From the IMG/VR virus record IMGVR_UViG_3300030107_002093, positions 38,726 to 102,725 of that record: DNA of 64,000 bases. The stretch is one strand, 5' to 3'. Of the stretch, positions 6,228-48,635 are shown piece after piece (position 1 is the stretch's first letter; the number at the start of each line of letters is the position of its first letter). The notes under the pieces were generated by a model, which had not been told where the DNA came from, searched no databases, and worked only from the letters and a program-made list of their open reading frames with translations. The stretch comes from a virus. The position numbers and the translations under genes are program-made.

Positions 6228-6556
6228 TAGTAGATAGTGGAAAGGAAGCATTAGCATCAACAATGGCAAGCACGTTTACAAAGGTAAGAATAGGCAATGG
6301 CGGCGATGACACGGCATCTTCGCAGACTGCTTTGGATGCCTTCGTAGCAGAGAAGACAGTAACCCCTTCTAGAATAGGGTCACAGTTGGTTTGGACTGCT
6401 TCTTTCACTGGTGCAGAGATTGGAACACAAGGAGTGTCAGAAATCGGAATATTCAATACCGCCGATACCCTATTGAGCCGAGTTACCTTCACGAATACTG
6501 GAGTAGTGCCATCGGCAGATACAGTGACATTCACAATTAGATTGGAGGTAGATTAA
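6224..6556 (+). CDS. Small tail/baseplate protein (110 aa)
   Basis: The start ATG overlaps the upstream stop (ATGA) and has a strong AGGAGG Shine-Dalgarno 8 nt upstream. The protein is short, mostly beta-type and Thr/Ser-rich, with a phrase GVSEIGIFNTADTLL like the core of phage tail-collar or fibre-attachment proteins, where a new structural element is announced by G-x-x-E-I-G-I. It lies between the large hub-like protein and the giant fibre, so it may link the fibre to the baseplate. The stop overlaps the next ATG by one base (TAATG). Confidence 0.5.
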   Translation: MIVDSGKEALASTMASTFTKVRIGNGGDDTASSQTALDAFVAEKTVTPSRIGSQLVWTASFTGAEIGTQGVSEIGIFNTADTLLSRVTFTNTGVVPSADTVTFTIRLEVD

Positions 6557-26038: not shown

Positions 26039-26169
26039 TATATCAACTCAAATACCTTCGCTATCAATAACAACGACAGGAATATGTTTACCCCTGCCGC
26101 TACTGTTCTAAACAAGGCCATCGTAGCGAAATGGTCTTGCCCCCAATGTTCTATGTCATCACCGTTCAA
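26038..26169 (-). CDS. Small hydrophobic protein, TTG start (43 aa)
   Basis: TTG at 26169 overlaps the TGA of the polymerase C-terminal gene (TTGA), and GGAG lies 6 nt upstream. The frame ends in TAATG, the start of the next gene. The 43-residue product has a charged start (MNGDDIEHWG) and a hydrophobic C-terminal helix (about residues 18-43). The exact fit between two genes, with coupling at both ends, supports it. Confidence 0.55.
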   Translation of the reverse strand: MNGDDIEHWGQDHFATMALFRTVAAGVNIFLSLLLIAKVFELI

Positions 26170-27038
26170 AACCACTCCTCCAAACTACTTTGTTTTATGT
26201 CCTTCTTTATCTGCATTACATTCCATCCCATTGCTCTGAATATAGGGTCAGCCTTCTTCATGATTGACCCAGCATAGTGTAGCCAATCAGGGGTATATCC
26301 ATCGAAGTCGCTCTCCGTTAGCCCTGCCACATACTTCGGTTCAACAGTCTTTTGGTGTATAGGATGGAAATACACGTTGTTAGGATTCACTATCCTACAA
26401 AAGAGATAGGAGTCTGTTATCGGCACATCATTGATGGCATTGTAGTATACAATACCCTCGATGCCAGCACCAATGGTTGGCCTCTTTCCTTCTAGTGTCT
26501 GCAATGTCATGTTATTGCAACACGCCCCATTAGTCAAGGAATCGAAATCATTCTTCCTTTTGCAATTACTGCACTTGACCTTGAATCTCTCTTCCCTGAA
26601 TCGACTACGCTTCAAAATGTCAGTAATCGGAATCTGTCCTGATAAAACCGTGTAATATTTATCTCTCAAAAATTCCACTATTTCTGCTTCATCCTTGTTT
26701 TCAACCCACATGTTGAGAACTGCTATCTGAACTTCCTTGGCTAGTTTAGTCTCAGAGACTCTCTTAGCAGTGAAGCCAGTCATGGTGAATTCCTTGTCAT
26801 CTAGGAACTTACCATCCTTCCAAGTAATCAAACCAGCGTTTCTGTTCTTTACACAACCAACACCGAGGGATTCAAAGTATTTCTCAAACTCAAGAACCAC
26901 AGGGTGTTCGTCTAACTCTAGGAGATTAGGAAAGAACTTCCTTACATGGTCATTGAGTTTACCCAAGTTCTCTTGTGCTTCCTCAACAGAATCCACTTGG
27001 CAGTAGATTGAATCTGTATGTCCGTAAACTACTTTCAT
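26166..27038 (-). CDS. DNA polymerase B, C-terminal subunit (motif C, thumb, PIP box)
   Basis: 290 residues, starting just before polymerase motif C, YGHTDS (residues 5-10); the first Asp of the usual YGDTDS is His, while the catalytic Asp9 is kept. Then follow KYFESLGVGCVKNRNAGL palm/thumb sequence, an inserted Cys cluster (KCSNC and ACC, ~155-175) and a thumb. The last eight residues, QSSLEEWF, form a textbook PCNA-interacting motif. Together with the gene at 28127 it forms a complete B-family polymerase; the two products must associate to be active. No intein residues are present at either break. Confidence 0.9.
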   Translation of the reverse strand: MKVVYGHTDSIYCQVDSVEEAQENLGKLNDHVRKFFPNLLELDEHPVVLEFEKYFESLGVGCVKNRNAGLITWKDGKFLDDKEFTMTGFTAKRVSETKLAKEVQIAVLNMWVENKDEAEIVEFLRDKYYTVLSGQIPITDILKRSRFREERFKVKCSNCKRKNDFDSLTNGACCNNMTLQTLEGKRPTIGAGIEGIVYYNAINDVPITDSYLFCRIVNPNNVYFHPIHQKTVEPKYVAGLTESDFDGYTPDWLHYAGSIMKKADPIFRAMGWNVMQIKKDIKQSSLEEWF

Positions 27039-27220
27039 TTCTTCTCCTCCTTGTGTTCATCCAACAAATGCCCTGCCCTTGCTTGTAATTCATAGGCATA
27101 ACATTGTTTACAGTAATGAGTCTTTGACACTAGGTCACTTTTGTTTGATGGCATTAACCGACAACTTCTGTAGCCTAAGTCAATAACAGTCGCAGGTTCT
27201 TCACAATTATAACACTTCAT
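27035..27220 (-). CDS. Zinc-finger microprotein (61 aa)
   Basis: 61 residues with CYNC at the N-terminus, a third Cys at YRSC and CKQC near residue 38, enough for one or two zinc sites, followed by a helical, basic/acidic tail. Its stop overlaps the start of the polymerase C-terminal gene (ATGA). It is one of six small genes filling the gap between the two polymerase halves. Confidence 0.65.
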   Translation of the reverse strand: MKCYNCEEPATVIDLGYRSCRLMPSNKSDLVSKTHYCKQCYAYELQARAGHLLDEHKEEKK

Positions 27221-27453
27221 TCTTCCCTCTCCATATATTTTGTGTGGTCTTTGGGCAACTTGTGTTGTCTCCTAACCATCATGTTACTAAGATAGGTGCT
27301 GATGTTAGTAGCCCCTGTTCGGAACCGCTTCTCGGCAACCTTGTCTCCTTCTGGAACCATCTCAGCCATTAGTCCATCTAACCATGCTCTACGACCAACC
27401 CATTCTAGTATCTCGTATTCCACATGGGCTACGCTTCTTGCTCTACTGGTCAT
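27217..27453 (-). CDS. Small basic protein in polymerase gap (78 aa)
   Basis: 78 residues, coupled by ATGA at both ends. It is helical and basic with no cysteines, unlike its neighbours; the centre reads RRAWLDGLMAEMV and the tail RRQHKLPKDHTKY. No family is recognised. A small DNA-binding or polymerase-associated protein is possible. Confidence 0.6.
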   Translation of the reverse strand: MTSRARSVAHVEYEILEWVGRRAWLDGLMAEMVPEGDKVAEKRFRTGATNISTYLSNMMVRRQHKLPKDHTKYMEREE

Positions 27454-27656
27454 TCTACCTCACCTTCCGATGGCTGACAATCACTATTATAGCAAAGAAA
27501 CGTAACCTCATGTTGCACTTCGTAGTTTACATCCATAGGTGAGTCGTATTCGGGATGGCCTCTCCAACCCTCATAAAAGCAATAAGTGGACGGTTGTATA
27601 TACATATTCTCTCCACACTTCGGACATTTTACGTTCATAGCGGTCTTCCAAGTCAT
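27450..27656 (-). CDS. Zinc-ribbon microprotein, paralogue of 27835 (68 aa)
   Basis: 68 residues with KCPKCGENMY near the start and TFLCYNSDC near the end. The protein at 27835 has the same plan: CPKCGKEMYYN, then SFNCYNEEC. The two are clearly paralogues, with a Trp/Tyr/acidic middle between the ribbon halves. The cysteine spacing fits one zinc ribbon with a long insert. Role unknown. Confidence 0.65.
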   Translation of the reverse strand: MTWKTAMNVKCPKCGENMYIQPSTYCFYEGWRGHPEYDSPMDVNYEVQHEVTFLCYNSDCQPSEGEVE

Positions 27657-27838
27657 TCTTCCTCACCATATCCCCAATTCTTCAAGTCCTTCTCAGTCCA
27701 AGGAGTTCTCATTTGAATCACATCAGCAACTAACTGGTTGATACATGTTGGACAGACCGGGCCTGATGTTGTGCTTTGTAGGGTTATTACACCCACACCA
27801 ACATTACCACCTTCTACATTACAAATTACACATTTCAT
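27653..27838 (-). CDS. Zinc-finger microprotein (61 aa)
   Basis: 61 residues with CVIC at residues 3-6 and CPTC near residue 29, a compact treble-clef-like spacing, then a helix and an acidic EEE end. It is coupled by ATGA to both neighbours. It lies between the two paralogous ribbon proteins of the polymerase gap. Confidence 0.65.
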   Translation of the reverse strand: MKCVICNVEGGNVGVGVITLQSTTSGPVCPTCINQLVADVIQMRTPWTEKDLKNWGYGEEE

Positions 27839-28029
27839 ATGTCATCCTCCTTCGGTTTGCACTCTTCGTTGTAGCAATTGAAGGAAACTTCGTAGCACCC
27901 TTCATAGTAGCCGTTCAATTCATCATCATCCCAGCGAACGTGCCACTGCTCCTCTGTTGTTTTCAAGAACATATTGTAATACATCTCCTTTCCACACTTC
28001 GGGCAGTTTGGTCTGAAAAAACTATTCAT
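27835..28029 (-). CDS. Zinc-ribbon microprotein, paralogue of 27450 (64 aa)
   Basis: 64 residues; N-terminal CPKCGKEMYYN and C-terminal FNCYNEECKP match the layout of the protein at 27450, with an acidic and aromatic middle. Its ATG overlaps the stop of the 34-residue gene upstream. The duplication is local, separated only by one unrelated zinc gene. Confidence 0.65.
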   Translation of the reverse strand: MNSFFRPNCPKCGKEMYYNMFLKTTEEQWHVRWDDDELNGYYEGCYEVSFNCYNEECKPKEDDI

Positions 28030-28130
28030 TTCTTATTCCTCCTTTCCATATTACGTTGGTATCTTTCCCATGTCATTCCTTCGTCAAAGGTCAACCACTT
28101 CCATAGTTTCTTTATCCACTTAATCATCAT
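28026..28130 (-). CDS. Basic microprotein directly after polymerase N-half (34 aa)
   Basis: A 34-residue frame, MMIKWIKKLWKWLTFDEG then a basic tail ending RRNKK. The start overlaps the stop of the polymerase N-terminal gene and the stop overlaps the next ATG, exactly filling the space. The N-terminal half is amphipathic and rich in Trp and Lys, as in membrane-active or protein-docking peptides. Function unknown. Confidence 0.5.
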   Translation of the reverse strand: MMIKWIKKLWKWLTFDEGMTWERYQRNMERRNKK

Positions 28131-29788
28131 AACTCCCTCGCTTTGAATGCGGCCTCTCTAATGGCCTGTCTTGCACTAGCAGTGATACTAGCCGCAAGGT
28201 CTACGTTAGCCCAACCAAACCCCTGATATGCAATGATACCATAGAAGGAAGCCATCAATCTCTTGACTGCTAATTGGTTGTTATTCCACTTGTTATAATC
28301 ACTTGTCGTTTCAGCGTTTCTCATCAAGGACTTGTATTCATTCCTCAATTGCTTCAACTCAAGTAGAGCCTTCGGGAGAATCCCCAACTCATCAGTTTTG
28401 AAATACATCATCTCGTATTCGGTTTCAGCACTGAAATCCTTGGGGGTTTTGATATTGACTCCAAAGGCAGTCGGTTCATCAGAGATTGTCTCAAATGAAA
28501 TGTTACGCGCAATTGTCATGCTCGGATAAAGCCCAGCGAAATCGAATGCGGCGACACCCAAATGTAATCCATTTGTGGACTCACTGAGCGGGTCATACAC
28601 CATTGCCCCATCGTATGCTACCCTCTGCCCTTTCTCGCCAGTAGGAGCCTTCCAAGGGGCATTTCTCATGAAATATATGCCTCCCATGTTACTTGCATAG
28701 AAACATGCATCGAAGGGAGCCTTCAGAAGTCTCTGGAGTGACAGTATTGCTTCTGTTGTGTGTTGCATTTCATCTATTCGGACTAATAGTTCAACGTCAA
28801 CCCTCGCGTATTCCAAATAGGTTTCAGTATCCTCAAGCCAACCCCTTGCAAAGAACTCATTCTTATCAGGGAACTTCTCACTGACGAGTTTCTTTGAACC
28901 TAGAACTGTCTCTGCAACGTAATCCAATGCCATTGACGGTAGTGTCCCTCTTTGTGCATCGTTCCATTGTCTCTCAAATGCCATGTCCAGAGGCACACAT
29001 ATCCTTCCCTTGATTGGTTGTGATATAGGAGAGTAGTTGTGAATCGCTTCTTCATAGCCTGACTTGTTCACTCCTGTTATCTCGTTGAATGGAGACATCA
29101 AACGTGGGTCTAAACCGTGAGCCACTATACGTTCAATCAACTTAGGCAAGTCGAACTTCCAACCGAACCAAGAGATAAGCATGTCAGGGTCTTGTTCAAT
29201 CATATCAGCCATGAACGCAACTAACATCTTCTGCTCTGAATGGTATAGACGATTTGTAGAAACATCGTATCCCTTTTCTAGCATTTCCTCTACGTTTGGA
29301 CACCACCAATAAGTAGTGTATCTTCTCTTGTAATTATCATATACAACAATACAAGTGATAGCACCGTCATGTTCTCCACCTTGCATCCACTCCATATCCC
29401 AATACCACTTACGCATCTCGTATTCTGGTATCTCATCTATGCAATCCACCGCATACCTGTAATGGTGTGCAACATCTGCTTCATATGTCTGACCTAACTT
29501 ATCGCGTAACCTGTAGGAGTATGATGGCCTTGCTGGTTTCCAAGTGACCTTGACTAAATCATTACCCTCTAGGTTCTTGTAGTCACCTTCCTCGGTGTTT
29601 ATCTCAAGTCGAAACCTACCCCACCTATCCTTGAACATCAAGTTCTCTATCTCCGTATATGGAGAGTCCTTCTCAATGAAGAAGTATGGCGGGAACTCCT
29701 TGAAAGAGACAACTTTCTCTTCTCTCTCAAGGGTTTCCGGGTTTCTAGTTCTTATTCCTATTCCATCGTTTATTCTACTAATTATCAT
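28127..29788 (-). CDS. DNA polymerase B, N-terminal subunit (exonuclease, motifs A and B)
   Basis: 553 residues. The 3'-5' exonuclease shows Exo I YWDMEW (Asp131, Glu133), Exo II WKFDLP (Asp213; the usual Asn is absent) and Exo III YARVD (Tyr327, Asp331). Polymerase motif A is AAFDFAGLYPS (Asp416) and motif B is KRLMASFYG (Lys509-Gly517), where the common Asn is Ala. The chain stops about 35 residues after motif B, and motif C is supplied by the gene at 26166. Both halves are intact, so this is gene fission and not decay. Confidence 0.9.
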   Translation of the reverse strand: MIISRINDGIGIRTRNPETLEREEKVVSFKEFPPYFFIEKDSPYTEIENLMFKDRWGRFRLEINTEEGDYKNLEGNDLVKVTWKPARPSYSYRLRDKLGQTYEADVAHHYRYAVDCIDEIPEYEMRKWYWDMEWMQGGEHDGAITCIVVYDNYKRRYTTYWWCPNVEEMLEKGYDVSTNRLYHSEQKMLVAFMADMIEQDPDMLISWFGWKFDLPKLIERIVAHGLDPRLMSPFNEITGVNKSGYEEAIHNYSPISQPIKGRICVPLDMAFERQWNDAQRGTLPSMALDYVAETVLGSKKLVSEKFPDKNEFFARGWLEDTETYLEYARVDVELLVRIDEMQHTTEAILSLQRLLKAPFDACFYASNMGGIYFMRNAPWKAPTGEKGQRVAYDGAMVYDPLSESTNGLHLGVAAFDFAGLYPSMTIARNISFETISDEPTAFGVNIKTPKDFSAETEYEMMYFKTDELGILPKALLELKQLRNEYKSLMRNAETTSDYNKWNNNQLAVKRLMASFYGIIAYQGFGWANVDLAASITASARQAIREAAFKAREL

Positions 29789-38954: not shown

Positions 38955-39162
38955 CTATACCATCTACTATCTTATTGAGTGCCTTACTCAGGTTCACTAC
39001 TTCATTCATATTCACACGGATTCCCTTCTTGGTTGGCTTACCGTTATTGAACCACCTGATGTCAACCACCTTAATGTTCCAATACTCACCTTCCTTTATC
39101 TGAATCTCATTGTTTGCATCTCTTGGTATCCTTGCTATAATATCCCATTTGTCATTGTCCAT
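38941..39162 (-). CDS. PC4-like ssDNA-binding transcription coactivator
   Basis: 73 residues. The core VVDIRWFNNGKPTKKGIRV followed by a helix NLSKALNKIVDG matches the PC4/p15 fold: four strands with the D-I-R-x-F/W and G-K-P-x-x-K-G-I signatures, then one helix. PC4 proteins dimerise, bind single-stranded DNA and melted promoters. With the viral TFB at 42501 it may steer transcription or protect ssDNA. Confidence 0.7.
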   Translation of the reverse strand: MDNDKWDIIARIPRDANNEIQIKEGEYWNIKVVDIRWFNNGKPTKKGIRVNMNEVVNLSKALNKIVDGIDDTE

Positions 39163-39562
39163 CTTCTATTCCTCCCTTGAATTCCTGTAGTTGTTTAATC
39201 GACTTGAAGTATCTAGGGGACTCCAACTCATCCACTCTGTGTGCTACCCACACAACTCCACCGAGACTACTAATCTTCACTAGTTCGTATGTCTTCTCCC
39301 CGACTTGGAACATGTCCTCAGTCTCTACTTCTGGGACAAGCCCGAAGTGCTTCGTCAACTCAAAGGAAATGGAGCCGAGGTTCTCAGCAATATACTGAAC
39401 AATCAGGTGTCGTTGAATAGGAACCTTAGCATCAACAGTGACTTCTATTCTCCCTATCATATTACACACCTTACACTTGTTCCCCTCACATATCGGGCAG
39501 GGAATCTCAGCAGGTAATGGTGCAGGGAATCTAACAGTCACCGCACGTTTCACAGTTTCCAC
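39152..39562 (-). CDS. Zinc-finger protein (136 aa)
   Basis: 136 residues. The N-terminus has CPICEGNKCKVCNMIGR, two CxxC pairs like half of a DnaJ-type zinc domain. The rest is an alpha/beta domain with no recognised motif (DMFQVGEKTYELVKISS strand region). It overlaps the PC4-like gene by 11 nt and the lipoprotein gene by 13 nt. Confidence 0.6.
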   Translation of the reverse strand: METVKRAVTVRFPAPLPAEIPCPICEGNKCKVCNMIGRIEVTVDAKVPIQRHLIVQYIAENLGSISFELTKHFGLVPEVETEDMFQVGEKTYELVKISSLGGVVWVAHRVDELESPRYFKSIKQLQEFKGGIEDGQ

Positions 39563-40355: not shown

Positions 40356-40898
40356 TTATTCTTCCTCCATTTTTATTTCTTCTTGTTTTATTTCTAGTTC
40401 TTCTTCTTCGGTCTTGTAATTAACCACTGTTTCTGGTGGTTCCATCACTCCGAACATTACCTTCTTCGCAATCTGCGAGTCTAATCCATATGCTAAATAC
40501 TCATTGTCTCCTAACACTATGGCCGACTCCAATACTGGCTTCCATGTCTTCAACGACTTCCAATCAGTCATGCTCCAAAAAGCAGTCCCGAAAGGATGTG
40601 TGTGTATCCAGCACTTGATGGGCAACTTCATCGGTGCGCCATTGATTAACTCGTCTTCATGTCCTTCAAAGGAAACGAATCCCGGTGTTCCGTAACTGAT
40701 GTATAGATTCTCATTTGAATCTACCATCACTTGGACTTCCCTTGGGATGTCAAACGCTTTCTGCGATGCGTTCCAAATCACACTGAGGAAAGTCTCAGTA
40801 GTGTTGTTGGGATACAACCACTCGATGTCGTCCTTCAGTTGCTTGTATGCATCTCTTATGTTTTTCTTCCAATTCTTATTCAATACTTCTTCATTCAT
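40356..40898 (-). CDS. JAB/MPN metalloprotease (deubiquitinase-like)
   Basis: 180 residues. The JAMM motif is complete: IHTHPFGTAFWSMTDW with His99, His101, Ser109 and Asp112, and a possible upstream Glu in TETFLSVIW. The C-terminus is a Glu-rich tail. JAB enzymes cleave after the Gly-Gly of ubiquitin-like proteins, either to mature them or to release conjugates. An E1-like protein (41699) and a beta-grasp protein ending GGSL (46999) are in the same gene block, so the three probably work together. Phage tail JAB proteins also exist, but this one is far from the tail genes. Confidence 0.8.
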   Translation of the reverse strand: MNEEVLNKNWKKNIRDAYKQLKDDIEWLYPNNTTETFLSVIWNASQKAFDIPREVQVMVDSNENLYISYGTPGFVSFEGHEDELINGAPMKLPIKCWIHTHPFGTAFWSMTDWKSLKTWKPVLESAIVLGDNEYLAYGLDSQIAKKVMFGVMEPPETVVNYKTEEEELEIKQEEIKMEEE

Positions 40899-40899
40899 T

Positions 40900-41139
40900 T
40901 TATGCTCCTCCTAAATTTGCTATAATAGCATCTTGTTCGTTCTGGAAGTTATGATATGCTTCGTGTCCAGAAATGAAACCACCAGCATGTCTCTTTGTTC
41001 CTAAGAACTCCTCCCCACAAGCAGGGCATGTAACCTTTACAATCTCTGCTTGTAGATAATACCCATCTGTGGATATTACAGTCATTATTTTGTCTAAGTC
41101 TTCTTCACTTAAATCGTGTATATCACTATCTTCACTCAT
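40900..41139 (-). CDS. C2H2-type zinc-finger protein ending Gly-Gly-Ala
   Basis: 79 residues. The centre reads CPACGEEFLGTKRHAGG then SGHEAYHNF, a C2-H2 finger like TFIIIA. The N-terminus is acidic. The last residues are NLGGA, leaving one residue after a Gly-Gly. The gene lies between the JAB protease and the gene next to the E1-like protein, so processing of this tail is conceivable, but the body does not look like a beta-grasp fold. Confidence 0.6.
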   Translation of the reverse strand: MSEDSDIHDLSEEDLDKIMTVISTDGYYLQAEIVKVTCPACGEEFLGTKRHAGGFISGHEAYHNFQNEQDAIIANLGGA

Positions 41140-41702
41140 TCTTCTTCACTCCAATCTCTTTTCTTTTCCCATTTTCCATACGCCATTTCAAATCCATCTG
41201 CAAAGTATTCATTGTTTGGACTGAACATCTTTATTTCATACTTGTAGCATTCTCCGCACATGATATATTTACTCATTGTGGCGGTTGATTTGTTGACAAG
41301 CGTGTCAAACCTCTTCGCACCACCCGGAACATATTCTTCGCAGTTGAAACAAACAATATCCCTATTCTCATTCGTTTTCACATATACCTTCAATGGTTTT
41401 CTGTAATTGTCATAATGAGAATGTAATATTCCAGATATAACATCAGGGAACTTGTAAATTACACGGTTGAAATAGTTCTTAGAAGAAAACAATTGTCTTC
41501 TCTTTAGTCTCCTATTCCCCTGTCGCACACCCGCGATGCTTAGGTCTTTCAACTTGGTATATGGTAGCGATTCCAAGTAATCTATTACCTCATGAATAGT
41601 AACTATGTCTCCGACCTTAAGAAAATCGAAGAACTCTCTAAGAGAGTTTGTCAATTTCTTATGGTTGTAGTTTCTAACATTTCCATTCGGCATGCATATC
41701 AC
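41136..41702 (-). CDS. Winged-helix-like protein with zinc ribbon (188 aa)
   Basis: Starts at GTG 41702 (overlapping the E1 stop, GTGA) or at ATG 41693. The N-terminal ~75 residues look like a winged helix (LTNSLREFFDFLKVGDIVTI, then a basic GNRRLKRRQ). The second half has CFNC and CGEC pairs that form a zinc site. It ends in EEE. Position between E1 and JAB suggests a link to that system or plain DNA binding; neither is proven. Confidence 0.55.
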   Translation of the reverse strand: MICMPNGNVRNYNHKKLTNSLREFFDFLKVGDIVTIHEVIDYLESLPYTKLKDLSIAGVRQGNRRLKRRQLFSSKNYFNRVIYKFPDVISGILHSHYDNYRKPLKVYVKTNENRDIVCFNCEEYVPGGAKRFDTLVNKSTATMSKYIMCGECYKYEIKMFSPNNEYFADGFEMAYGKWEKKRDWSEEE

Positions 41703-42298
41703 ACATTCAATATTATCTTGTCAGCCACATCATCGTGGTCAGGCCACCATCTCTGAATCCATTGTGCGGCAATGCCAGCAATAGCCATATGCATTGTGTT
41801 CATCGTGTCAGCCGCACCTTCCCATCCCTCTCCCTGACAGGAGAAGGAACCTTCTGGCCCACTCAATAATGCATCAACCAAGTTCTCGTCTACCTTGTAT
41901 GAAATTAATGCCGCGTTTCTACCCTGTGCGCGTAAATCTAGCCACTTAATCTTCGCAGAGTCTCCATACCCCTGTCGGTATAGAAGACGGCGAACTGCAA
42001 GGTTGTCTGCGCAACAGATTACCAAGTCATATCCCTTGAGTTGCTTCTCAATGTGAACCTTGAATGGAACCGCATTGCAACTAGCAGACCATGTGTCTAC
42101 TTTCAGTTCACCTACATCATGGTCACTATACATCTGATTGCCAAGGTTACCCTTCTCTACCTTATCGTCATCAAAGACTGTTATGTCGTATAGATGCACA
42201 CCCGGCATATCAGTTCTACATCTCTGGTTTATTCTATTCAGGTTGTGAATGAGGTAACTACCTATTCCACCTGCGCCTATTATCATTATCTTTCTCAT
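41699..42298 (-). CDS. ThiF/E1-like adenylyltransferase
   Basis: 199 residues, shorter than canonical ThiF/MoeB (~245). The nucleotide-binding loop GAGGIGSYL (residues 8-16), an acidic FDDDKVEKGNLGNQM segment (42-56, where E1s have D-x-V-E-x-S-N-L-x-R-Q), and a CCADN motif (95-99, Asp98) are all E1 features. Cys154 in SFSCQGEG is a candidate thioester cysteine. The enzyme would adenylate the C-terminal Gly of a ubiquitin-like protein for conjugation or sulphur transfer. A JAB protease and a Gly-Gly-tailed protein are encoded nearby. Confidence 0.8.
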   Translation of the reverse strand: MRKIMIIGAGGIGSYLIHNLNRINQRCRTDMPGVHLYDITVFDDDKVEKGNLGNQMYSDHDVGELKVDTWSASCNAVPFKVHIEKQLKGYDLVICCADNLAVRRLLYRQGYGDSAKIKWLDLRAQGRNAALISYKVDENLVDALLSGPEGSFSCQGEGWEGAADTMNTMHMAIAGIAAQWIQRWWPDHDDVADKIILNV

Positions 42299-42383
42299 TT
42301 TCTTTCATCTCCATATATTGTTTTAGTGTCAAGGATAGTCCTCTTTCCTTCATTTCAAGATACAACTCCTTGACAAGTCCCAT
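42258..42383 (-). CDS. Charged microprotein before E1 (41 aa)
   Basis: ATG 42383 has GAGG about 7 nt upstream and yields 41 residues, MGLVKELYLEMKERGLSLTL and then a very charged Lys/Arg/Asn/Asp tail. It overlaps the E1 start by 41 nt. A longer version from 42443 would run inside the zinc-ribbon gene, so the shorter form is preferred. Function unknown. Confidence 0.45.
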   Translation of the reverse strand: MGLVKELYLEMKERGLSLTLKQYMEMKENEKDNDNRRRWNR

Positions 42384-42384
42384 C

Positions 42385-42504
42385 TTAATTCCTCTTAGCC
42401 TGTTTTCTCTCGGCCTTCTTTTGCTTGAGGTAGCATCTATCACACACTACATATGAGCGTCTATATTTCTTACGTCCACACTCACAGTATTCCTTCCCCC
42501 TCAA
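42385..42504 (-). CDS. Zinc-ribbon microprotein, TTG start (39 aa)
   Basis: TTG 42504 overlaps the stop of the TFB gene (TTGA). The frame holds YCECGRKKYRRS and CDRCYLKQ, two Cys pairs of a small zinc ribbon, and a very basic C-terminus (KKAERKQAKRN). The layout suits nucleic-acid binding. It fills the gap between TFB and the next gene exactly. Confidence 0.55.
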   Translation of the reverse strand: MRGKEYCECGRKKYRRSYVVCDRCYLKQKKAERKQAKRN

Positions 42505-43412
42505 TATCTCACGCCCGATACGAAGTCCTCGACATCCATATCAGATAATCTCTTCCTATCAAGCCCGAATATATCTGCAAATTTTTGCAGAGCGAATCTC
42601 AATCCAATCACTGATGAATTCCATACATCACATATGTTATCTTGTGTGATTGACTCATCCGTCATTTTAGCAGTCCACCAGAAAGTAGCCGCTAACATGG
42701 TATCGGAATACCTCATGTCCAATGCTTCTATATGCCTAGAGACATATTCCACCATCTTCAATACACATATCCTATAGTATTGGGACACCTCAGTATCCAA
42801 CTTACCTATTAGCACAGTCGCCTTCTGAATATGATTCTCAATAGCGAAGACATGTGCCTTACGTTGATGTCTTGCTATACGCCTAGCCATCTTTGATATC
42901 TCATTCTGTTTTACCTTGGTGTATTTGGCATGGTCTTGGATATTACAAACAATCCCTGCTTCCTTCAATACATAGTAGGTAAGACCAGCACATCTTCTCT
43001 CTACACTGCTTCCTCTGAATATCCTTTCACGACACAGTGTCTTGTAATACCCATGAGTCCTATCTTTGATATCCCAACCACTAACGTAGTATGAGAGTGT
43101 AGTGTTGATTAGGAGTTTAGCCCTTCTCTCTGATTCTGTTTCTGGCTGGCTTCTCAGTTGCTCTCTATATAGAGCGAACTTACCACTACTGCCATAGGCC
43201 TCTTGCTTTTTGATATAAGAACCCAATCTACCCGTTGTGACTCCGCGTTTATCATCGTCACTTAGTTTGATTACTTGTGTAGTTTCTTCAAATGGATTCA
43301 CTACTAGAACCAAACCGCAGTCATCGCATGTCCTTTCACCTAAATGCTCAATGAATGTAAAATCCTTGCAACCACATTCCTTACACATGTCACCCGTAGT
43401 TGTCAGGTTCAT
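42501..43412 (-). CDS. tfb: Transcription factor B (TFB/TFIIB homologue)
   Basis: 303 residues, the normal archaeal TFB length. The N-terminal zinc ribbon has Cys10, Cys13, Cys29 and Cys32 (CKEC, CDDCG). A B-finger/linker region follows, then two cyclin-like repeats (about 95-190 and 200-295), the second carrying a helix-turn-helix for the promoter BRE. TFB recruits archaeal RNA polymerase to TBP-bound promoters. A virus-coded copy could redirect host polymerase to viral promoters, possibly those with the unusual repeats at 54-58 kb. Confidence 0.85.
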   Translation of the reverse strand: MNLTTTGDMCKECGCKDFTFIEHLGERTCDDCGLVLVVNPFEETTQVIKLSDDDKRGVTTGRLGSYIKKQEAYGSSGKFALYREQLRSQPETESERRAKLLINTTLSYYVSGWDIKDRTHGYYKTLCRERIFRGSSVERRCAGLTYYVLKEAGIVCNIQDHAKYTKVKQNEISKMARRIARHQRKAHVFAIENHIQKATVLIGKLDTEVSQYYRICVLKMVEYVSRHIEALDMRYSDTMLAATFWWTAKMTDESITQDNICDVWNSSVIGLRFALQKFADIFGLDRKRLSDMDVEDFVSGVRY

Positions 43413-44728
43413 CTGTATAACGCTCCTTCTTGTGGGTCACGTCTGTAGAATTCTCTTCTATATCTCTCCTCATACCTAAGAGCAACAGTAGGCGGATACG
43501 GGTATGTTTTAGCAACAATCTTCTTGTCCTTAATAGAACGGTAGGGCTTTAGTAGAGTCCTATCGAACCTATGCTTTCCATCCCATTTCGCTGATAGTGG
43601 TTCAAGACTGCGTAGCGTGTATATCATGTCACCAGCCTGTCTATCATTTAGAAGCATCATAGCCCTAGCCGCTAGTTGGTCACCAATGCTAGAGTTGACA
43701 TGTAGGTTGTCTATGCATATCGGGCCACTCCAGTCCTTGCCACTCCAATAGTATGTATTCACCTTCTGGTGGTTCTGCTTCATTCCCCTCTCAGCATCAG
43801 CGATAATCCAATCAGCATCCTTGCCTCTTACGAATAGTGCCATGTATCCCTCATGTAGAACTAGTTCTATGTTATCATACTCTGACGATAAGTCCTGTAG
43901 GAGTTCCTTCGCTCTAGTCTCCACCATATCTTGTGTTCTGTTCTGCATCAACCATGCTATCATCAACTTGAGTTGGCTTTCTGTAGGCTCTTCACCCATT
44001 AGTCTAGTCCACAGTTTCTTCGGTGTTATCCTATACCAAGTCTTAGACCTTGATAGGTTAAGACCGAATGTGTTGATGAAGGTATTCAAATTACTAACGC
44101 TTATCTCACCCCATATGCCTTCTGAAATCTCAAGCACCGCAGTCTTCTCACCTATCAGTGATGTGTTGATTCTAACATCTATCTTAGTTCCATCATCCCA
44201 GAACTGATACGGTGTCCTGTTCTCAAGAGCATACAATACATTAGCAGGGTATGTTACAACTGTGTCAATATAGTTCTCAAGGCTTTCAGCACTTCTGTCA
44301 AAACAACTCTTGAAGATGACCTTCGCAATAGCCCTCGATATGTCCTCAAGATTCATTCTCTGACTGTTGAGAGTATAGACCGAGTTGTTCTTCTGTATCC
44401 ATAGCATAGCATCCCCATCATCCCTCTTGAAGGTAATAATGGCAGTCCACCTATCCCAAGGGGTCACATCTATGTAGCGATATTTAGTGCTAGGAGCCTT
44501 TGGTATCAGATAGTTTCTCACACTAGTAGCGAGCATCTCGTTAGCAGGGTCTAGTTTCTTACTTTCCCTTGAGGCAATGGATAGTTTTGAACTCTGAATA
44601 ACCTTCTCACCTAAGTGATTGGTTCTCCTTCCTAACTTATGCTGAACGCCAGTTACTCTCATCAAAAAAGTAGTTTCGTATAGTTCCCCTGAGTCATCAG
44701 GTCTTGGTATGCAGTATCGTATTTTCAT
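43409..44728 (-). CDS. Large hypothetical protein (439 aa)
   Basis: ATG 44728 was chosen because GGTGATT lies just upstream; 44746 is the alternative. The 439-residue product overlaps the TFB start by 4 nt. It has mixed alpha/beta composition and many Trp and Arg residues (DVTPWDRWTAIITF near 95, YWSGKDWSG near 340), with a basic YRREFYRRDPQEG end. No motif is recognised. Its size and place between ribonucleotide reductase and TFB mark it as a core gene of unknown role. Confidence 0.7.
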   Translation of the reverse strand: MKIRYCIPRPDDSGELYETTFLMRVTGVQHKLGRRTNHLGEKVIQSSKLSIASRESKKLDPANEMLATSVRNYLIPKAPSTKYRYIDVTPWDRWTAIITFKRDDGDAMLWIQKNNSVYTLNSQRMNLEDISRAIAKVIFKSCFDRSAESLENYIDTVVTYPANVLYALENRTPYQFWDDGTKIDVRINTSLIGEKTAVLEISEGIWGEISVSNLNTFINTFGLNLSRSKTWYRITPKKLWTRLMGEEPTESQLKLMIAWLMQNRTQDMVETRAKELLQDLSSEYDNIELVLHEGYMALFVRGKDADWIIADAERGMKQNHQKVNTYYWSGKDWSGPICIDNLHVNSSIGDQLAARAMMLLNDRQAGDMIYTLRSLEPLSAKWDGKHRFDRTLLKPYRSIKDKKIVAKTYPYPPTVALRYEERYRREFYRRDPQEGALYR

Positions 44729-44987
44729 AATAATCACCGTATTCATCTTTATTCATTGTATAGTATTCTTTTTTCTCGTAGAGGTCTAATAGTTCCTCAT
44801 AATTCTTGAAGGTTGAGTAACCTCCTTTAATCAATCGCATTATGCCATACTTCATTTCTGCGAATGATGTTCTCTTCCTTTCATATAGGTGAAAGGCCAA
44901 TCTCGCTGATTCCTTAGCACCAGCATTTGACATTGAGGAGACAATCTCCTCTTCAATAAGTAGCCATGCCTTCGGATTAGATTTCAC
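44697..44987 (-). CDS. Small helical protein after RNR (96 aa)
   Basis: I prefer GTG 44987 (96 aa), with AGGTGG 5 nt upstream inside the end of the reductase gene; the ATG at 45035 would overlap that gene by 59 nt. The product is helical with aromatic and charged residues (HLYERKRTSFAEMKYGIMRL). No family recognised. The start is the least certain point. Confidence 0.55.
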   Translation of the reverse strand: MKSNPKAWLLIEEEIVSSMSNAGAKESARLAFHLYERKRTSFAEMKYGIMRLIKGGYSTFKNYEELLDLYEKKEYYTMNKDEYGDYYENTILHTKT

Positions 44988-46896
44988 AACTTCCACCTGC
45001 ACAGGCAACTTCGCCTTGCAGATTTGTATTGTCATTGTATTCTAACACTTCGGTTAGGTCTATTTGTTTTAATTTGGCGAACATATCATTATATTGTTCT
45101 TCTTCTATTGCTTCAAATGGTGCTTGTGTATATACACCATTGTCGAATGGTATAACAGATATCCCATTGTAGAAATGTCTGTTATCCCACATCCATTCTT
45201 TCACTTCATCCCACTCTTCATCCCTTACGTTGACTGTGGCTGAAACGTTGTGCGAGTTAACGCCAGACACATGCCCAGCACGAACCCAATTGACTGAGAA
45301 CTTCTTCAATCTATTCAACATTGACAGAGCAGACTCCTCTCTAGTGATTATATCACCAGATGGAGCCTTCTGTGGTATTGCTAGTATTGCTTGGTTCTCA
45401 TCCCACTCGTCATCCTCGACCAACTCTGGGAGTTTGTCTTTCAGATACAAGTAAATGGCTTCGGTTTTCAATACCCGAATCCTACGAATGTAATAATTGG
45501 AATACCATGCATGTATTCCTGATGATGTGCCTAACACACAACTGGTTGTTCCAGCAGGTTTGACACACGTTGTCCTTGCGGCAACATTGATTCCCAATAG
45601 TTTAGCATAGACATTGTTCTCAGCCATAACTTCGTTTGCCGCCGCTTGAAGGTCTAGTTCCTTCAGTTTGTTGCTTGCTATACCTGTCATTGATATCCCA
45701 ATCAATGCCTCCTTCTCAGTGGTAGTCTTCCAAGACTGCCTCAGATAATGGAAATCAGTGTAGGTCGCTTGTAGTGTTCCGAGGAAAGTTGCCGCTCTTA
45801 CTCTCTCTTCCAAGTCCTCTTGACTAGTGACAGTTGATACGTTGACTTCACACAAGTTGCAGAACTGATGATTTTTCAAACTTATCTCTGCACAGGGATT
45901 CGTTCCCCAATCCTTGTCATTGGAGAAGAATATACCCGGCTCACCAGTCTTGTTGGCTCTGGTTCTATTCCACAAGTCATCGAAGAACTCCTTCTCGCAC
46001 TTCTCTCTAATGAGAACTGCTGAGTTGTTCGCTCTTGCTCTTTGTGGATTAGTATCCCAATACTCACCGTTCTTAGCGTTAATCATATCATTGTCATCAG
46101 CGTTGAACAGACTAATCATAGCCGCTCTTCTGATACCACCAGCGAGAACCGCATCAGCAATGTGACACATAACGTCATGTGCTTCTATTGGTTTCATCTG
46201 GTAGTCATCTTCCATATTAAGCAACATGTTCTCGATAGTGACAATACACTTCCTCAATGGAGCAGGGCCGGGAGCCTTACCACCACTAGTCTTCAATGGT
46301 GAACCCTTTGGCCTTACATCCGAATAGTCGAAACGTGGTGTTGTCGTTCTAACACCCGTGTATGCCTCCATTAGAACCTTAACGGCATCAGCCCATCCCT
46401 CAATGGAATCAGCAACTAGATGTCGATAAGTTCTATCAGCATTAGGCTTCAATATACGAGGCAATTGCTCTACATGGTGTCTCTGAACAGAATACCCAAC
46501 CCCTGTGCCGCCCAGCAACAGGAACATGGCTTCTGAAAATGACTCTATAGAGTCAATCGCCATGTATGCACAGTTGTATATTCTGTTCGGAGACAATTCA
46601 ATCGATTTACCTGCGAACTGCATAGAACGCATGGAAGGCAGAACCTTCTTGTCCAATACGAATTCATAGGCCCAATCTATGACTTCGGGAAACCCGTGTA
46701 AGTGAGAGAACTTCTTCTTGTGCATTTCCTTATTTCTATTACAAATCTCTTCCCAAGATTCTCTCCTGAAATTCAATTCGTCATATTTAGCATACTTCAT
46801 GTGTGAAGTTATTTCCGATAGTATCTCTTGTTGTAGTTCCATAGATTTCACTCTCTTTTTGATTTCTGTCAGGCTTCCCACCTGACTGACAACCAT
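44977..46896 (-). CDS. Class II (B12-dependent) ribonucleoside-triphosphate reductase
   Basis: 639 residues, of the monomeric RTPR type. The cysteines match the Lactobacillus enzyme one for one. Cys109 (YNCAY) and Cys346 form the redox pair. Cys335 in NPCAEI, with Glu337, is the thiyl-radical residue, and its 11-residue distance to Cys346 is the same as in RTPR. Cys632 and Cys637 (CAGGSC) are the C-terminal shuttle pair. It makes dNTPs from NTPs in the host cytoplasm with adenosylcobalamin and without oxygen dependence. Start 46896 lies ~40 nt after a TATA-like box; Met at 46842 is an alternative. Confidence 0.9.
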   Translation of the reverse strand: MVVSQVGSLTEIKKRVKSMELQQEILSEITSHMKYAKYDELNFRRESWEEICNRNKEMHKKKFSHLHGFPEVIDWAYEFVLDKKVLPSMRSMQFAGKSIELSPNRIYNCAYMAIDSIESFSEAMFLLLGGTGVGYSVQRHHVEQLPRILKPNADRTYRHLVADSIEGWADAVKVLMEAYTGVRTTTPRFDYSDVRPKGSPLKTSGGKAPGPAPLRKCIVTIENMLLNMEDDYQMKPIEAHDVMCHIADAVLAGGIRRAAMISLFNADDNDMINAKNGEYWDTNPQRARANNSAVLIREKCEKEFFDDLWNRTRANKTGEPGIFFSNDKDWGTNPCAEISLKNHQFCNLCEVNVSTVTSQEDLEERVRAATFLGTLQATYTDFHYLRQSWKTTTEKEALIGISMTGIASNKLKELDLQAAANEVMAENNVYAKLLGINVAARTTCVKPAGTTSCVLGTSSGIHAWYSNYYIRRIRVLKTEAIYLYLKDKLPELVEDDEWDENQAILAIPQKAPSGDIITREESALSMLNRLKKFSVNWVRAGHVSGVNSHNVSATVNVRDEEWDEVKEWMWDNRHFYNGISVIPFDNGVYTQAPFEAIEEEQYNDMFAKLKQIDLTEVLEYNDNTNLQGEVACAGGSCEI

Positions 46897-46932
46897 ATCC
46901 CGTTGCTGGGTTTTTTGCGTTATTCAGACCGC

Positions 46933-46939
46933 ATATAAT
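46933..46939 (-). promoter_or_regulatory. TATA-like box before ribonucleotide reductase
   Basis: The 102 bp between the reductase and the beta-grasp gene hold no gene. On the minus strand ATTATATGC at about 46931-46939 lies ~40 nt before ATG 46896, the right distance for an archaeal TATA box and a short leader. A BRE is not obvious. Confidence 0.35.
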
Positions 46940-46998
46940 GCTTAGGCAATATTAACAGAGTTGCACTTAAGCATTGCTGATTTTGGAAGATGATAGGT

Positions 46999-47202
46999 TC
47001 AGAGAGAACCTCCGACCATAGCCGGAATCAGGTTGACTGAATCAACCCCATCCCAACTAACTGCCGAAATATTCTCCCTTGAAACCATCTCACCATTCAC
47101 GAATACCCAATGTGTAGGGTGGTCGTTTATCTGGTCGATAACTTCACTGGCGGTAACTTGTAGTTCCGTGTGTCCTGTATCATTCATTATTCTCAATAGC
47201 AT
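46999..47202 (-). CDS. Ubiquitin/ThiS/MoaD-like beta-grasp protein ending GGSL
   Basis: 67 residues; GGAAGGAATAAAA precedes the ATG. The pattern is that of a minimal beta-grasp: strand MLLRIMND, strand TELQVT, helix SEVIDQIND, strand WVFVNGEMVS, then WDGVDSVNLIPAMVGG. The N-G-E turn, the D-G-V-D-S-V-x-L-I-P stretch and the closing Gly64-Gly65 are hallmarks of ThiS, MoaD and ubiquitin-like modifiers. Two residues (Ser-Leu) follow the Gly-Gly, so a protease such as the JAB enzyme (40356) would have to trim it before the E1-like protein (41699) could act. Confidence 0.7.
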   Translation of the reverse strand: MLLRIMNDTGHTELQVTASEVIDQINDHPTHWVFVNGEMVSRENISAVSWDGVDSVNLIPAMVGGSL

Positions 47203-47239: not shown

Positions 47240-47491
47240 CTATGAAGCCTCCGGTCTGTTCTGCTGGTTTAGTTGCTCCACAAGCCTCTGTTGCTCCTGT
47301 AGCCTACCAGTGAGGATGTTGATTGTCTGCTCATAGTGCTTGCAGAGTGCAATATACTGTTGCAACTGGTTCGCAAGGTTCTGTGCAGTTCCCTGTAGGT
47401 TCAGAGCATTCTGTTGCAATTCTGCAAGAGCCGTCTGAGCCTCTTCCTCATCTTTCTTCGTTGTTTTCTTCGTTGTTTTCTTCTCAGTCAT
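47240..47491 (-). CDS. Coiled-coil protein with Lys-rich head (83 aa)
   Basis: ATG 47491 (83 aa) has AGGTGA upstream. A KKTTKKTTKK head is followed by a long helix rich in Gln, Leu and Ala (residues ~18-78), predicted as a coiled coil, with a single Cys. It may oligomerise and bind nucleic acid through the basic head. Function unknown. Confidence 0.6.
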   Translation of the reverse strand: MTEKKTTKKTTKKDEEEAQTALAELQQNALNLQGTAQNLANQLQQYIALCKHYEQTINILTGRLQEQQRLVEQLNQQNRPEAS

Positions 47492-48635
47492 TTCTTTCAC
47501 CTTTCAATTCATCAATTAATATTGAAATCTCTCTATTTGTATCGGGTATTTCCCCTTCGTATCCTAATGCTTTGACGTATGACTTTTGGGCATCAGAGGC
47601 CGGTTTATCGTTACGCCGGACTATTTTATTTAGAGTTTGGGCCTGTCTCTCTGTCGGGTCAGCCCCATTAGAGAGCCTTCTCCTCATATCACGGAGGAAA
47701 CTCTTCTCCCAATCATTCATCCCATCATCCTCAGTGAATACGCGGAAGCCGAAGTAGTCACAAACCGTCTTGAACTTGGCTTCTTCCTTCTCCTTACGAG
47801 CAGAGCGTAGTAGAGCATTCTTCTCTACCATTGCTATTCTCCTTGCTTCCTTCTGAGCATCCAAGTCATTGAGTTCCTCAATCCTCTTGGCAACCATCTC
47901 ATCTTCCTTGGCTACCTTCTCCTTGTGTTCCTCAATGAAGGCCCAGAACATAACTAGGTCATCCCATAGTTTGTCGTTGGGATATCCCCTTGTGTTTATC
48001 TGTGCCTTCGCATTGTCAGGATGATTCCATCTCCATACGATAGAAGCCATCTCATAATCGGTATCACCGAATGAGCCTGTTCCCTTCTTGCGTATAGCAG
48101 TAACAGGAACAGTCGTTCTAAGTGTTTCATCGTAACGATACTTACCCTTCTTCTGCCTGACGTTCAATCTAAGGTCTAGTTCCTTGATGTCATCGAACAT
48201 CTCAGTGAAATCCTCACCGTGAACATTCCACCAAGCAGTCTGCTTCAGTGCTTCCACACGAACATTAATCCACTGCTCAATCATCTCTTCAGAAATCTCA
48301 CCAGCCTTCAAGCCAGTCTCCTCACGAATAGCCCTGAGAATCAGATACGAGTTGATGTGGTCTGAACCTACGGCTCTCCTCACATCAGTCTCAGTATTGT
48401 GTATCTCAAAGTGATATGTGATATTGTGACCACACATACAGTAGCCTAGTGACTCCACCCAATCGGGCTTCTCGCCTAGTGTTCTCCACCATACGTTGCC
48501 TGTCGCAATCCACTCATGCTTGGCTTCATCGTAGTTGTCTGCCTTGGATAGGTCAACCATGTTCTGCTTCAGTTTCCTATCCCAATGACCATCTCCGAGT
48601 TCCCTCTTCCTTGGCAACTCTGTTATTTCAGCCAT
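47484..48635 (-). CDS. Phage-type protein with N-terminal zinc motif (383 aa)
   Basis: 383 residues. Near residue 65, YCMCGHNITYHFEIHN followed by VGSDHI resembles a metal-binding motif found in many phage proteins of unknown function. The middle is charged and coiled-coil-like (HKEKVAKEDEMVAKRIEELN). The end, DKPASDAQKSYVKALGY then TNREISILIDEL, is the small helical module common in phage helicase- and nuclease-associated proteins. The role is probably DNA-related. Confidence 0.6.
   Translation of the reverse strand: MAEITELPRKRELGDGHWDRKLKQNMVDLSKADNYDEAKHEWIATGNVWWRTLGEKPDWVESLGYCMCGHNITYHFEIHNTETDVRRAVGSDHINSYLILRAIREETGLKAGEISEEMIEQWINVRVEALKQTAWWNVHGEDFTEMFDDIKELDLRLNVRQKKGKYRYDETLRTTVPVTAIRKKGTGSFGDTDYEMASIVWRWNHPDNAKAQINTRGYPNDKLWDDLVMFWAFIEEHKEKVAKEDEMVAKRIEELNDLDAQKEARRIAMVEKNALLRSARKEKEEAKFKTVCDYFGFRVFTEDDGMNDWEKSFLRDMRRRLSNGADPTERQAQTLNKIVRRNDKPASDAQKSYVKALGYEGEIPDTNREISILIDELKGERND

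What the first reader, a model, noticed from the sequence alone, without database searches (positions are those of the whole stretch)
40356..47202. Viral ubiquitin-like system: E1, JAB protease and a Gly-Gly-tailed beta-grasp protein
Three parts of a ubiquitin-type pathway lie in one minus-strand block: a ThiF/E1-like enzyme (41699-42298; GAGGIG loop, CCADN, candidate Cys154), a complete JAMM protease (40356-40898; H-T-H-P, S, D) and a 67-residue ThiS/MoaD/ubiquitin-like protein (46999-47202) ending ...VGGSL. The two extra residues after Gly-Gly would need the protease, as in ubiquitin maturation. No E2 is visible, so the pathway could be direct E1 conjugation, or thiocarboxylate sulphur transfer. 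Known prokaryotic sets of this kind occur in bacteria, phages and some archaea; a set inside an archaeal virus replication block would be unusual. Targets could be host proteins or replisome parts.
Basis: partly seen in the sequence, partly recalled or inferred. Interest (0 to 1): 0.85.

Follow-up and report, generated by a model that had tools for sequence, protein, structure and literature searches.

The report
Archaeal virus ubiquitin-like activation module
A lineage of large marine viruses that probably infect archaea always carries three genes for making and activating a small ubiquitin-like tag protein (the tag, its activating enzyme and the protease that trims it), which suggests that these viruses tag proteins, or possibly carry sulphur, with machinery of their own.

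Summary
The window is part of a 102.7-kb tailed-virus record, most likely archaeal (magrovirus-like). The E1 (41699-42298) is a clear ThiF-family protein, closest to the PRTRC-system ThiF. The JAB protein (40356-40898) has the full JAMM signature, and its profile is closest to deubiquitinases (AMSH, archaeal Rpn11). The 67-residue protein (46999-47202) is predicted to be a beta-grasp, ThiS-like. All 107 distinct relatives keep Gly-Gly; 97 carry 1-3 extra residues of many sequences and 10 end exactly at Gly-Gly, as expected of a processed precursor.

The three genes are core. They co-occur wherever flanks allow, on one strand in 185 of 185 loci, and all are in 14 of 14 long records found through the terminase. 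Neighbours such as ribonucleotide reductase are often absent.

Whether the activated tail modifies proteins (favoured) or carries sulphur is open: capped Gly-Gly tails plus a JAMM protease also occur in bacterial sulphur carriers. A neighbouring protein (43409-44746), present in every trio locus, has one invariant Cys in a GPICIDN motif resembling an E2 active site; this is a lead, not a demonstration. The Gly-Gly tail of the zinc-finger protein between E1 and JAB is a Shine-Dalgarno artefact.

The parts
46999..47202 (-). Ubl: 67-residue ThiS-like beta-grasp protein, tail ...PAMVGG|SL (predicted cleavage after Gly65)
41699..42298 (-). E1-like ThiF-family adenylyltransferase, 199 aa; GAGGIG loop, Lys66, CCADN, invariant Cys154 in GSFSCQ; lacks the NLxRQ arginine and the C-terminal CxxC zinc motifs of MoeB/ThiF
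40356..40898 (-). JAMM/JAB metalloprotease, 180 aa; Glu54, His99, His101, Ser109, Asp112
43409..44746 (-). Always-associated 445-aa protein; C-terminal region has an invariant Cys344 in GPICIDN (candidate E2-like domain, unproven)
40900..41139 (-). C2H2-type zinc-finger protein between E1 and JAB; its Gly-Gly+1 tail is the Shine-Dalgarno sequence of the next gene, so it is not counted as a modifier
42501..43412 (-). TFIIB-like protein between the candidate E2 and E1 (context)
   Evidence: Pfam Zn_Ribbon_TF 5e-4; in 181/185 trio loci
44977..46896 (-). B12-type ribonucleotide reductase between Ubl and the rest (context; not always present)
   Evidence: phrog_367 2.8e-129; 124/185 trio loci

Best explanation
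The trio is a virus-encoded ubiquitin-like activation module that is core to this virus lineage. The 67-residue Ubl is made as a capped precursor. The JAMM protease cuts off the one or two residues after Gly65 (inferred from sequence and precedent). The E1 adenylates the exposed Gly-Gly carboxylate and may hold it on Cys154 (inferred from family chemistry and alignment). The activated Ubl is then attached to lysines of viral or host proteins, directly from E1 or through the neighbouring 43409-44746 protein acting as an E2 (inferred, weakest step), and the same JAMM enzyme removes it again. The setting suggests replication, repair or transcription proteins of virus or host as targets (inference only). 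Shown here: the gene set, motifs, predicted beta-grasp fold, tail pattern and obligate co-occurrence. Not shown: any chemical step. The narrower claim, that the trio is a real Ubl maturation and activation module whatever its end use, I hold at about 0.93; the confidence given here is for the full statement with protein modification as the end use.
For: Co-occurrence of all three wherever flanks allow (divergent loci resolved) and in 14/14 long records found through terminase. Invariant Gly-Gly with variable caps, including 10 natural cap-less forms. The JAMM profile is closest to deubiquitinases AMSH and CsRpn11, and fold matches include Rpn11-Ub and PfJAMM1-SAMP2 complexes. An archaeal Rpn11 is known to cut a ubiquitin precursor exactly after Gly-Gly and also to act on conjugates (PMC6043591). 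E1 is closest to PRTRC ThiF (hhalign 3.6e-20), from a system with a Ubl-like, an E2-like and a JAB protein and no annotated sulphur genes inside the clusters viewed. No rhodanese, ATP_bind_3 (tRNA-thiolation-type) or PALP enzyme in 11 of these viral genomes. 43409-44746 is in 185/185 trio loci, and among 24 families compared with an E2 profile PRTRC protein B ranks first and this family second, both aligned on the active-site Cys.
Against: The Ubl is ThiS-like and aligns along its length with E. coli ThiS. GG-capped sulphur carriers processed by JAMM exist (PMC6006322). E1 lacks a separate Cys domain and the NLxRQ arginine. The E2 reading has low HHalign probability (1-3%) and no Pfam or PDB support. 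Few lysines in the Ubl (34/107 have none) fit a modifier that avoids self-conjugation, but E. coli ThiS also has none. The host could supply sulphur-relay partners.
Confidence: 0.55

Rival explanations
1. Sulphur carrier: the capped Ubl is trimmed by JAMM, adenylated by E1 and turned into a C-terminal thiocarboxylate that donates sulphur to a viral or host small molecule, nucleotide or tRNA.
Against: No rhodanese, ATP_bind_3 or PALP enzyme in 11 viral genomes; no acceptor enzyme recognised near the trio; JAMM closest to deubiquitinases; E1 closest to PRTRC ThiF, not MoeB/ThiF.
Confidence: 0.27
2. Host-hijack cassette: the viral Ubl feeds into, or competes with, the host's own SAMP/Urm1 pathway, and the viral JAMM strips host modifiers; the viral E1 is an accessory.
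For: Most archaea encode their own Ubl proteins of the ThiS and MoaD groups (PMC2948915); the host of this virus was not examined.
Against: The virus carries its own E1 in every testable genome, with conserved catalytic residues; a hijacker would not need to keep all three.
Confidence: 0.1
3. Unrelated small protein: the 67-residue protein is not a modifier, and Gly-Gly is incidental; E1 modifies another substrate.
For: 10 of 46 relatives weakly match the T4 PinA Lon-inhibitor family (best 1.4e-4); sequence E-values to ThiS are modest; Ubl and E1 genes are about 4.7 kb apart.
Against: Predicted beta-grasp with a Gly-Gly tail of low confidence, i.e. probably flexible; listed PDB matches are mainly Ub/Ubl proteins; 107/107 Gly-Gly with 14 codon pairs; unbroken co-occurrence.
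Confidence: 0.05

Closest known systems
PRTRC system (ParB-related, ThiF-related cassette) of bacterial plasmids: proteins A (JAB), B (Prok-E2_D), C (Ubl-like), F, ThiF
   Same: Best E1 match; Ubl-like, JAB and ThiF in one strand block, the Ubl-like gene first and JAB and E1 near each other; protein B is a Prok-E2_D. That A is a JAB and C a Ubl is from my knowledge of the families and the 2006 description of such operons (PMC1779556).
   Different: Viral E1 is below the PRTRC_ThiF cut-off (62.8 vs 144.75 bits); no Prok-E2_D in viral genomes; protein C has no Gly-Gly end: most copies seen end in KG or have more residues after KG; no ParB or protein E partner was seen near the viral trio
crAss-like phage (Steigviridae) JAB + ThiF pair, e.g. 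crAss001 gp77-gp76
   Same: Viral JAB next to ThiF-family E1 in a replication region with RNR; E1 also lacks the NLxRQ arginine; profile match E1 1.3e-16, JAB 1e-4
   Different: E1 has an extra N-terminal region of about 160 aa, JAB is over 400 aa, no Gly-Gly Ubl recognised here; bacterial host
Capped sulphur-carrier systems (QbsE/QbsD, PtmS2/PtmS1)
   Same: Sulphur-carrier protein with 1-2 residues after Gly-Gly and a JAMM protease to remove them (PMC6006322)
   Different: No recognised sulphur source or acceptor gene in the virus
Archaeal ubiquitin system of Caldiarchaeum (CsUb, CsRpn11)
   Same: JAMM among the closest in sequence profile and closest in fold; precursor cut after Gly-Gly (PMC6043591)
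   Different: A full E1, E2 and small-RING cascade is known from an uncultured archaeon (PMC5654768 abstract), with a ubiquitin rather than a ThiS-like modifier
SAMP/JAMM system of haloarchaea
   Same: Beta-grasp GG modifier, ThiF-type E1 and JAMM (family background from PMC2948915 and PMC4443979); fold match to PfJAMM1-SAMP2
   Different: Cellular, not viral; family membership of the viral proteins not established

Membership tests
ThiF/E1-like adenylyltransferase superfamily | Significant match to the family model above the curated cut-off | tested here: met
   Pfam ThiF 57 bits vs cut-off 28.1
ThiF/E1-like adenylyltransferase superfamily | ATP-site residues: GxGGxG, Asp, NLxRQ arginine, Lys, Asp-Asn | tested here: inconclusive
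   All conserved in 12 relatives except the arginine of NLxRQ, replaced mostly by Tyr or Asn; crAss E1 also lacks it
JAMM/JAB metalloprotease | Glu + H-x-H-x7-S-x2-D metal site | tested here: met
   Glu54, His99, His101, Ser109, Asp112 invariant; H-x-H-P-x6-S-x2-D in 126/128
JAMM/JAB metalloprotease | JAMM fold | tested here: met
   AF2 pLDDT 92.5; the top PDB fold hits are JAMM enzymes with probability about 1, though TM-scores are only about 0.4
Beta-grasp ThiS/MoaD/Ubl | Beta-grasp fold | tested here: met
   AF2 model order E-E-H-E-E-H-E; matches to ubiquitin, NEDD8, MoaD, sulphur carrier; probabilities up to 1.00 but E-values not below 0.001
Beta-grasp ThiS/MoaD/Ubl | C-terminal Gly-Gly, exposed or exposable | tested here: met
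   107/107; caps 0-3 residues
ThiS family proper (Pfam PF02597) | Score above the Pfam ThiS cut-off | tested here: not met
   Window copy 17.3 bits vs 22.5; so I call it ThiS-like, not a ThiS
PRTRC system | ThiF over the TIGR03736 cut-off and a Prok-E2_D protein B | tested here: not met
   62.8 vs 144.75 bits; no PF14460 in 11 viral genomes while it rings in PRTRC plasmids
E2/UBC (for 43409-44746) | UBC fold with catalytic Cys | tested here: inconclusive
Protein-conjugating Ubl system | Isopeptide-linked Ubl on target proteins | not testable with these tools
   Needs biochemistry
Sulphur-carrier (thiocarboxylate) system | Sulphur donor (rhodanese) and acceptor enzyme encoded with the carrier | tested here: not met
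   No PF00581, PF01171 or PF00291 match in 11 viral genomes; the host could supply them, so this lowers but does not exclude the reading
Magrovirales | Relation to reference magroviruses | not tested
   ON649702 and OR863078 not in the collections; supported indirectly by split PolB, RFC-like and TFB-like proteins, portal hits only in archaeal viruses, genome size and gene layout (PMC10768690)

The most novel reading that the evidence does not exclude
A complete, virus-owned ubiquitin-like conjugation pathway (capped modifier, E1, a divergent E2 of a new family, and a deconjugating JAMM) is an obligate core function of a marine archaeal virus lineage and controls their replication or the host proteome.
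Probability: 0.25. Interest if true: 0.92.

Novelty: new variant of a known kind. Interest (0 to 1): 0.74.

Why it matters
If true, a whole lineage of marine viruses, most likely of archaea, depends on its own ubiquitin-like activation module. Such a set would be a minimal system (one modifier, one short E1, one JAMM) in which the split between sulphur transfer and protein modification can be tested directly. It would also show that tailed viruses of archaea run protein tagging as a core replication-phase function, not as an occasional accessory, and would give a tractable handle on viruses that have not been cultured.

Tried and rejected
Zinc-finger protein 40900-41139 as a second Gly-Gly modifier: rejected. 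Its tail is mostly GGAGGA with a start codon right after (48 of 49 GG-ending relatives) and 11 of 60 distinct relatives lack it, so it is the next gene's Shine-Dalgarno sequence. The EEE tail of JAB is the same effect (GAGGAAGAA); that of 41136-41702 probably is too (not checked in the DNA). Other GG-tailed small ORFs in the window: two, neither convincing. 43409-44746 in Pfam and PDB: nothing; HHalign to PRTRC F and crAss gp78 not significant, and its weak match to PRTRC B is off the active site. Prok-E2_D search in 190 genomes of one class: nothing rang, uninformative. Host from cellular genomes: only three E1 hits, on contigs of Maricaulis and Altibacter MAGs, read as misbinned viral contigs. 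JAB and Ubl in phage records by tblastn: no meaningful match. Druskaviridae HCTV-5: no PRTRC_ThiF-type E1. Apparent losses of E1/JAB in divergent loci were flank or contig-end effects: 9 of 10 records have both and the tenth locus runs to its contig end. Literature search for a described Ubl-E1-JAB trio in archaeal viruses: none found in the open-licence library; two primary magrovirus papers (PMC5434244, PMC11706807) are not held, so prior mention there cannot be excluded.
Full report
What is there. The window is bases 38726-102725 of a 102,725-base IMG/VR virus record. It is a tailed virus: terminase, portal and head protease lie upstream. The portal matches only archaeal viruses, mainly haloarchaeal Druskaviridae. 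The minus-strand block has a split family-B polymerase, a replication-factor-C-like ATPase, an ATP-dependent ligase and a TFIIB-like zinc-ribbon protein. Size, two oppositely transcribed clusters and split PolB fit published magrovirus descriptions (PMC10768690; PMC12999244). The reference genomes are not in the collections, so 'magrovirus of Poseidoniales' is inference.

The three genes. E1 (41699-42298) is ThiF family by Pfam (2.1e-15), and its best curated match is the PRTRC-system ThiF (2.9e-17, below that family's cut-off). In 12 relatives the nucleotide loop, Lys66, CC-x-DN and GSFSCQ are kept; Cys154 aligns with the cysteines of E. coli ThiF and MoeB, PRTRC ThiF and crAss-like E1. The arginine of NLxRQ is replaced. 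JAB (40356-40898) is weak on its own, but its family profile reaches AMSH-like protease (3.5e-6) and Caldiarchaeum Rpn11 (5.9e-6); Glu54, His99, His101, Ser109 and Asp112 are invariant. The AlphaFold2 model has pLDDT 92.5 and matches JAMM enzymes, including Rpn11-ubiquitin and PfJAMM1-SAMP2 complexes, with high probability but modest TM-scores. The Ubl (46999-47202) is predicted to be a beta-grasp, pLDDT 86, matching ubiquitin, NEDD8, MoaD and a sulphur carrier, with high probability but E-values that do not pass 0.001; it aligns along its length with E. coli ThiS.

The tail. Among 107 distinct relatives with complete ends, all keep Gly-Gly: 10 end there, 38 have one further residue, 57 two and 2 three, using 14 codon pairs; a first set of 91 had 34 different tails, counting 'none' as one. 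Invariant Gly-Gly with a variable or absent cap is what selection for the processed form predicts. The same check exposed an artefact: the zinc-finger protein between E1 and JAB also ends in Gly-Gly plus one, but there the codons are mostly GGAGGA followed at once by a start codon, i.e. a Shine-Dalgarno sequence, and 11 of 60 relatives lack it.

Co-occurrence. Profile scans of IMG/VR gave 227 E1, 209 Ubl and 292 JAB relatives; the best 80 of each were kept. Where the flank was long enough by thresholds that I set, the partners were present in 50/50 and 72/72 (E1-seeded), 71/71 and 69/69 (Ubl-seeded), 46/46 and 60/60 (JAB-seeded), and on one strand in all 185 loci with all three. The seed sets share contigs and are not independent. 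Seeding with a neighbour near JAB gave no exception. Seeding with one near Ubl gave gaps in 10 loci, of which nine records have both genes further away; the tenth locus runs to its contig end. The best test is the terminase seed, far from the trio: 14 of 14 records of 82-102 kb have one copy of each. In the 185 trio loci, RNR is found in 124 and the zinc-finger protein in 118 (not corrected for truncation), so the trio is kept while neighbours come and go.

A possible fourth part. 43409-44746 is found in all 185 trio loci. It has a single invariant Cys344 in GPICIDN, followed by what looks like a helix (NSSIGDQ.A.RA) and preceded by a helix and strand-like segments (my reading of the alignment); the order resembles a UBC domain. 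HHalign probability is only 1-3%, and Pfam and PDB searches are negative. I give the E2 reading about 0.35.

Mechanism. Trimming by JAMM and adenylation by E1 follow from family knowledge. The next step is open. For protein modification: deubiquitinase-like JAMM, PRTRC-like E1, no rhodanese, ATP_bind_3 or PALP gene in 11 viral genomes, possible E2. For sulphur transfer: ThiS-like sequence and the precedent of capped sulphur carriers with one or two residues after Gly-Gly that need a JAMM protease (PMC6006322). The Ubl is poor in lysine (34/107 with none; 1.2% overall against about 8% in three neighbours), but E. coli ThiS has none either, so this does not decide. Archaeal Rpn11 cutting a ubiquitin precursor exactly after Gly-Gly and acting on conjugates (PMC6043591) shows that one JAMM enzyme can do both jobs.

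Relation to what is known. Bacterial E1/JAB/Ubl operons were predicted in 2006 (PMC1779556). A ThiF-family gene was reported as one of the most prevalent AMGs among predicted archaeal viral genomes, with ubiquitination suggested (PMC8276007). crAss-like phages have JAB next to E1. I found no report of the full trio with a capped Gly-Gly Ubl as a core set of an archaeal virus lineage, within an open-licence library that lacks key papers. I therefore call it a new variant of a known kind.

Noticed in passing
window 40900-41139 and 40356-40898 (minus strand): Conserved protein tails (GG+1 and EEE) are Shine-Dalgarno sequences of the next gene read as codons; a general trap when reading tail motifs in compact viral genomes.
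   Followed up: yes
window 26166-29788 (minus strand): Family-B DNA polymerase split into two ORFs (28127-29788 and 26166-27038) with several tiny ORFs between.
   Followed up: partly
window 44977-46896 (minus strand): Ribonucleotide reductase is 54-58% identical to enzymes of bacterial phages (Microcystis, Oceanospirillum, Vibrio), unlike the archaeal-type replication genes; present in 124 of 185 trio loci.
   Followed up: partly
window 36-6227 and 6556-15615 (plus strand): Two very long ORFs of 2063 and 3019 codons, probably tail or adhesin proteins.
   Followed up: no
window 47484-48635 and 39152-39562 (minus strand): Two strongly conserved proteins of unknown function (383 aa, and 136 aa with a CPxC...CxxC zinc motif) flank the module.
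   Followed up: partly
record IMGVR_UViG_3300021958_000021 (loci L383, L406): A 184.7-kb record holds two copies each of E1 and JAB about 90 kb apart, which looks like two related genomes joined or a dimer.
   Followed up: no
Ubl family, alignment A4: 10 of 46 members weakly match T4 PinA, a Lon protease inhibitor family (best 1.4e-4).
   Followed up: no
L239-L241: Contigs of this virus lineage are binned in Maricaulis and Altibacter MAGs, probably by mistake.
   Followed up: no
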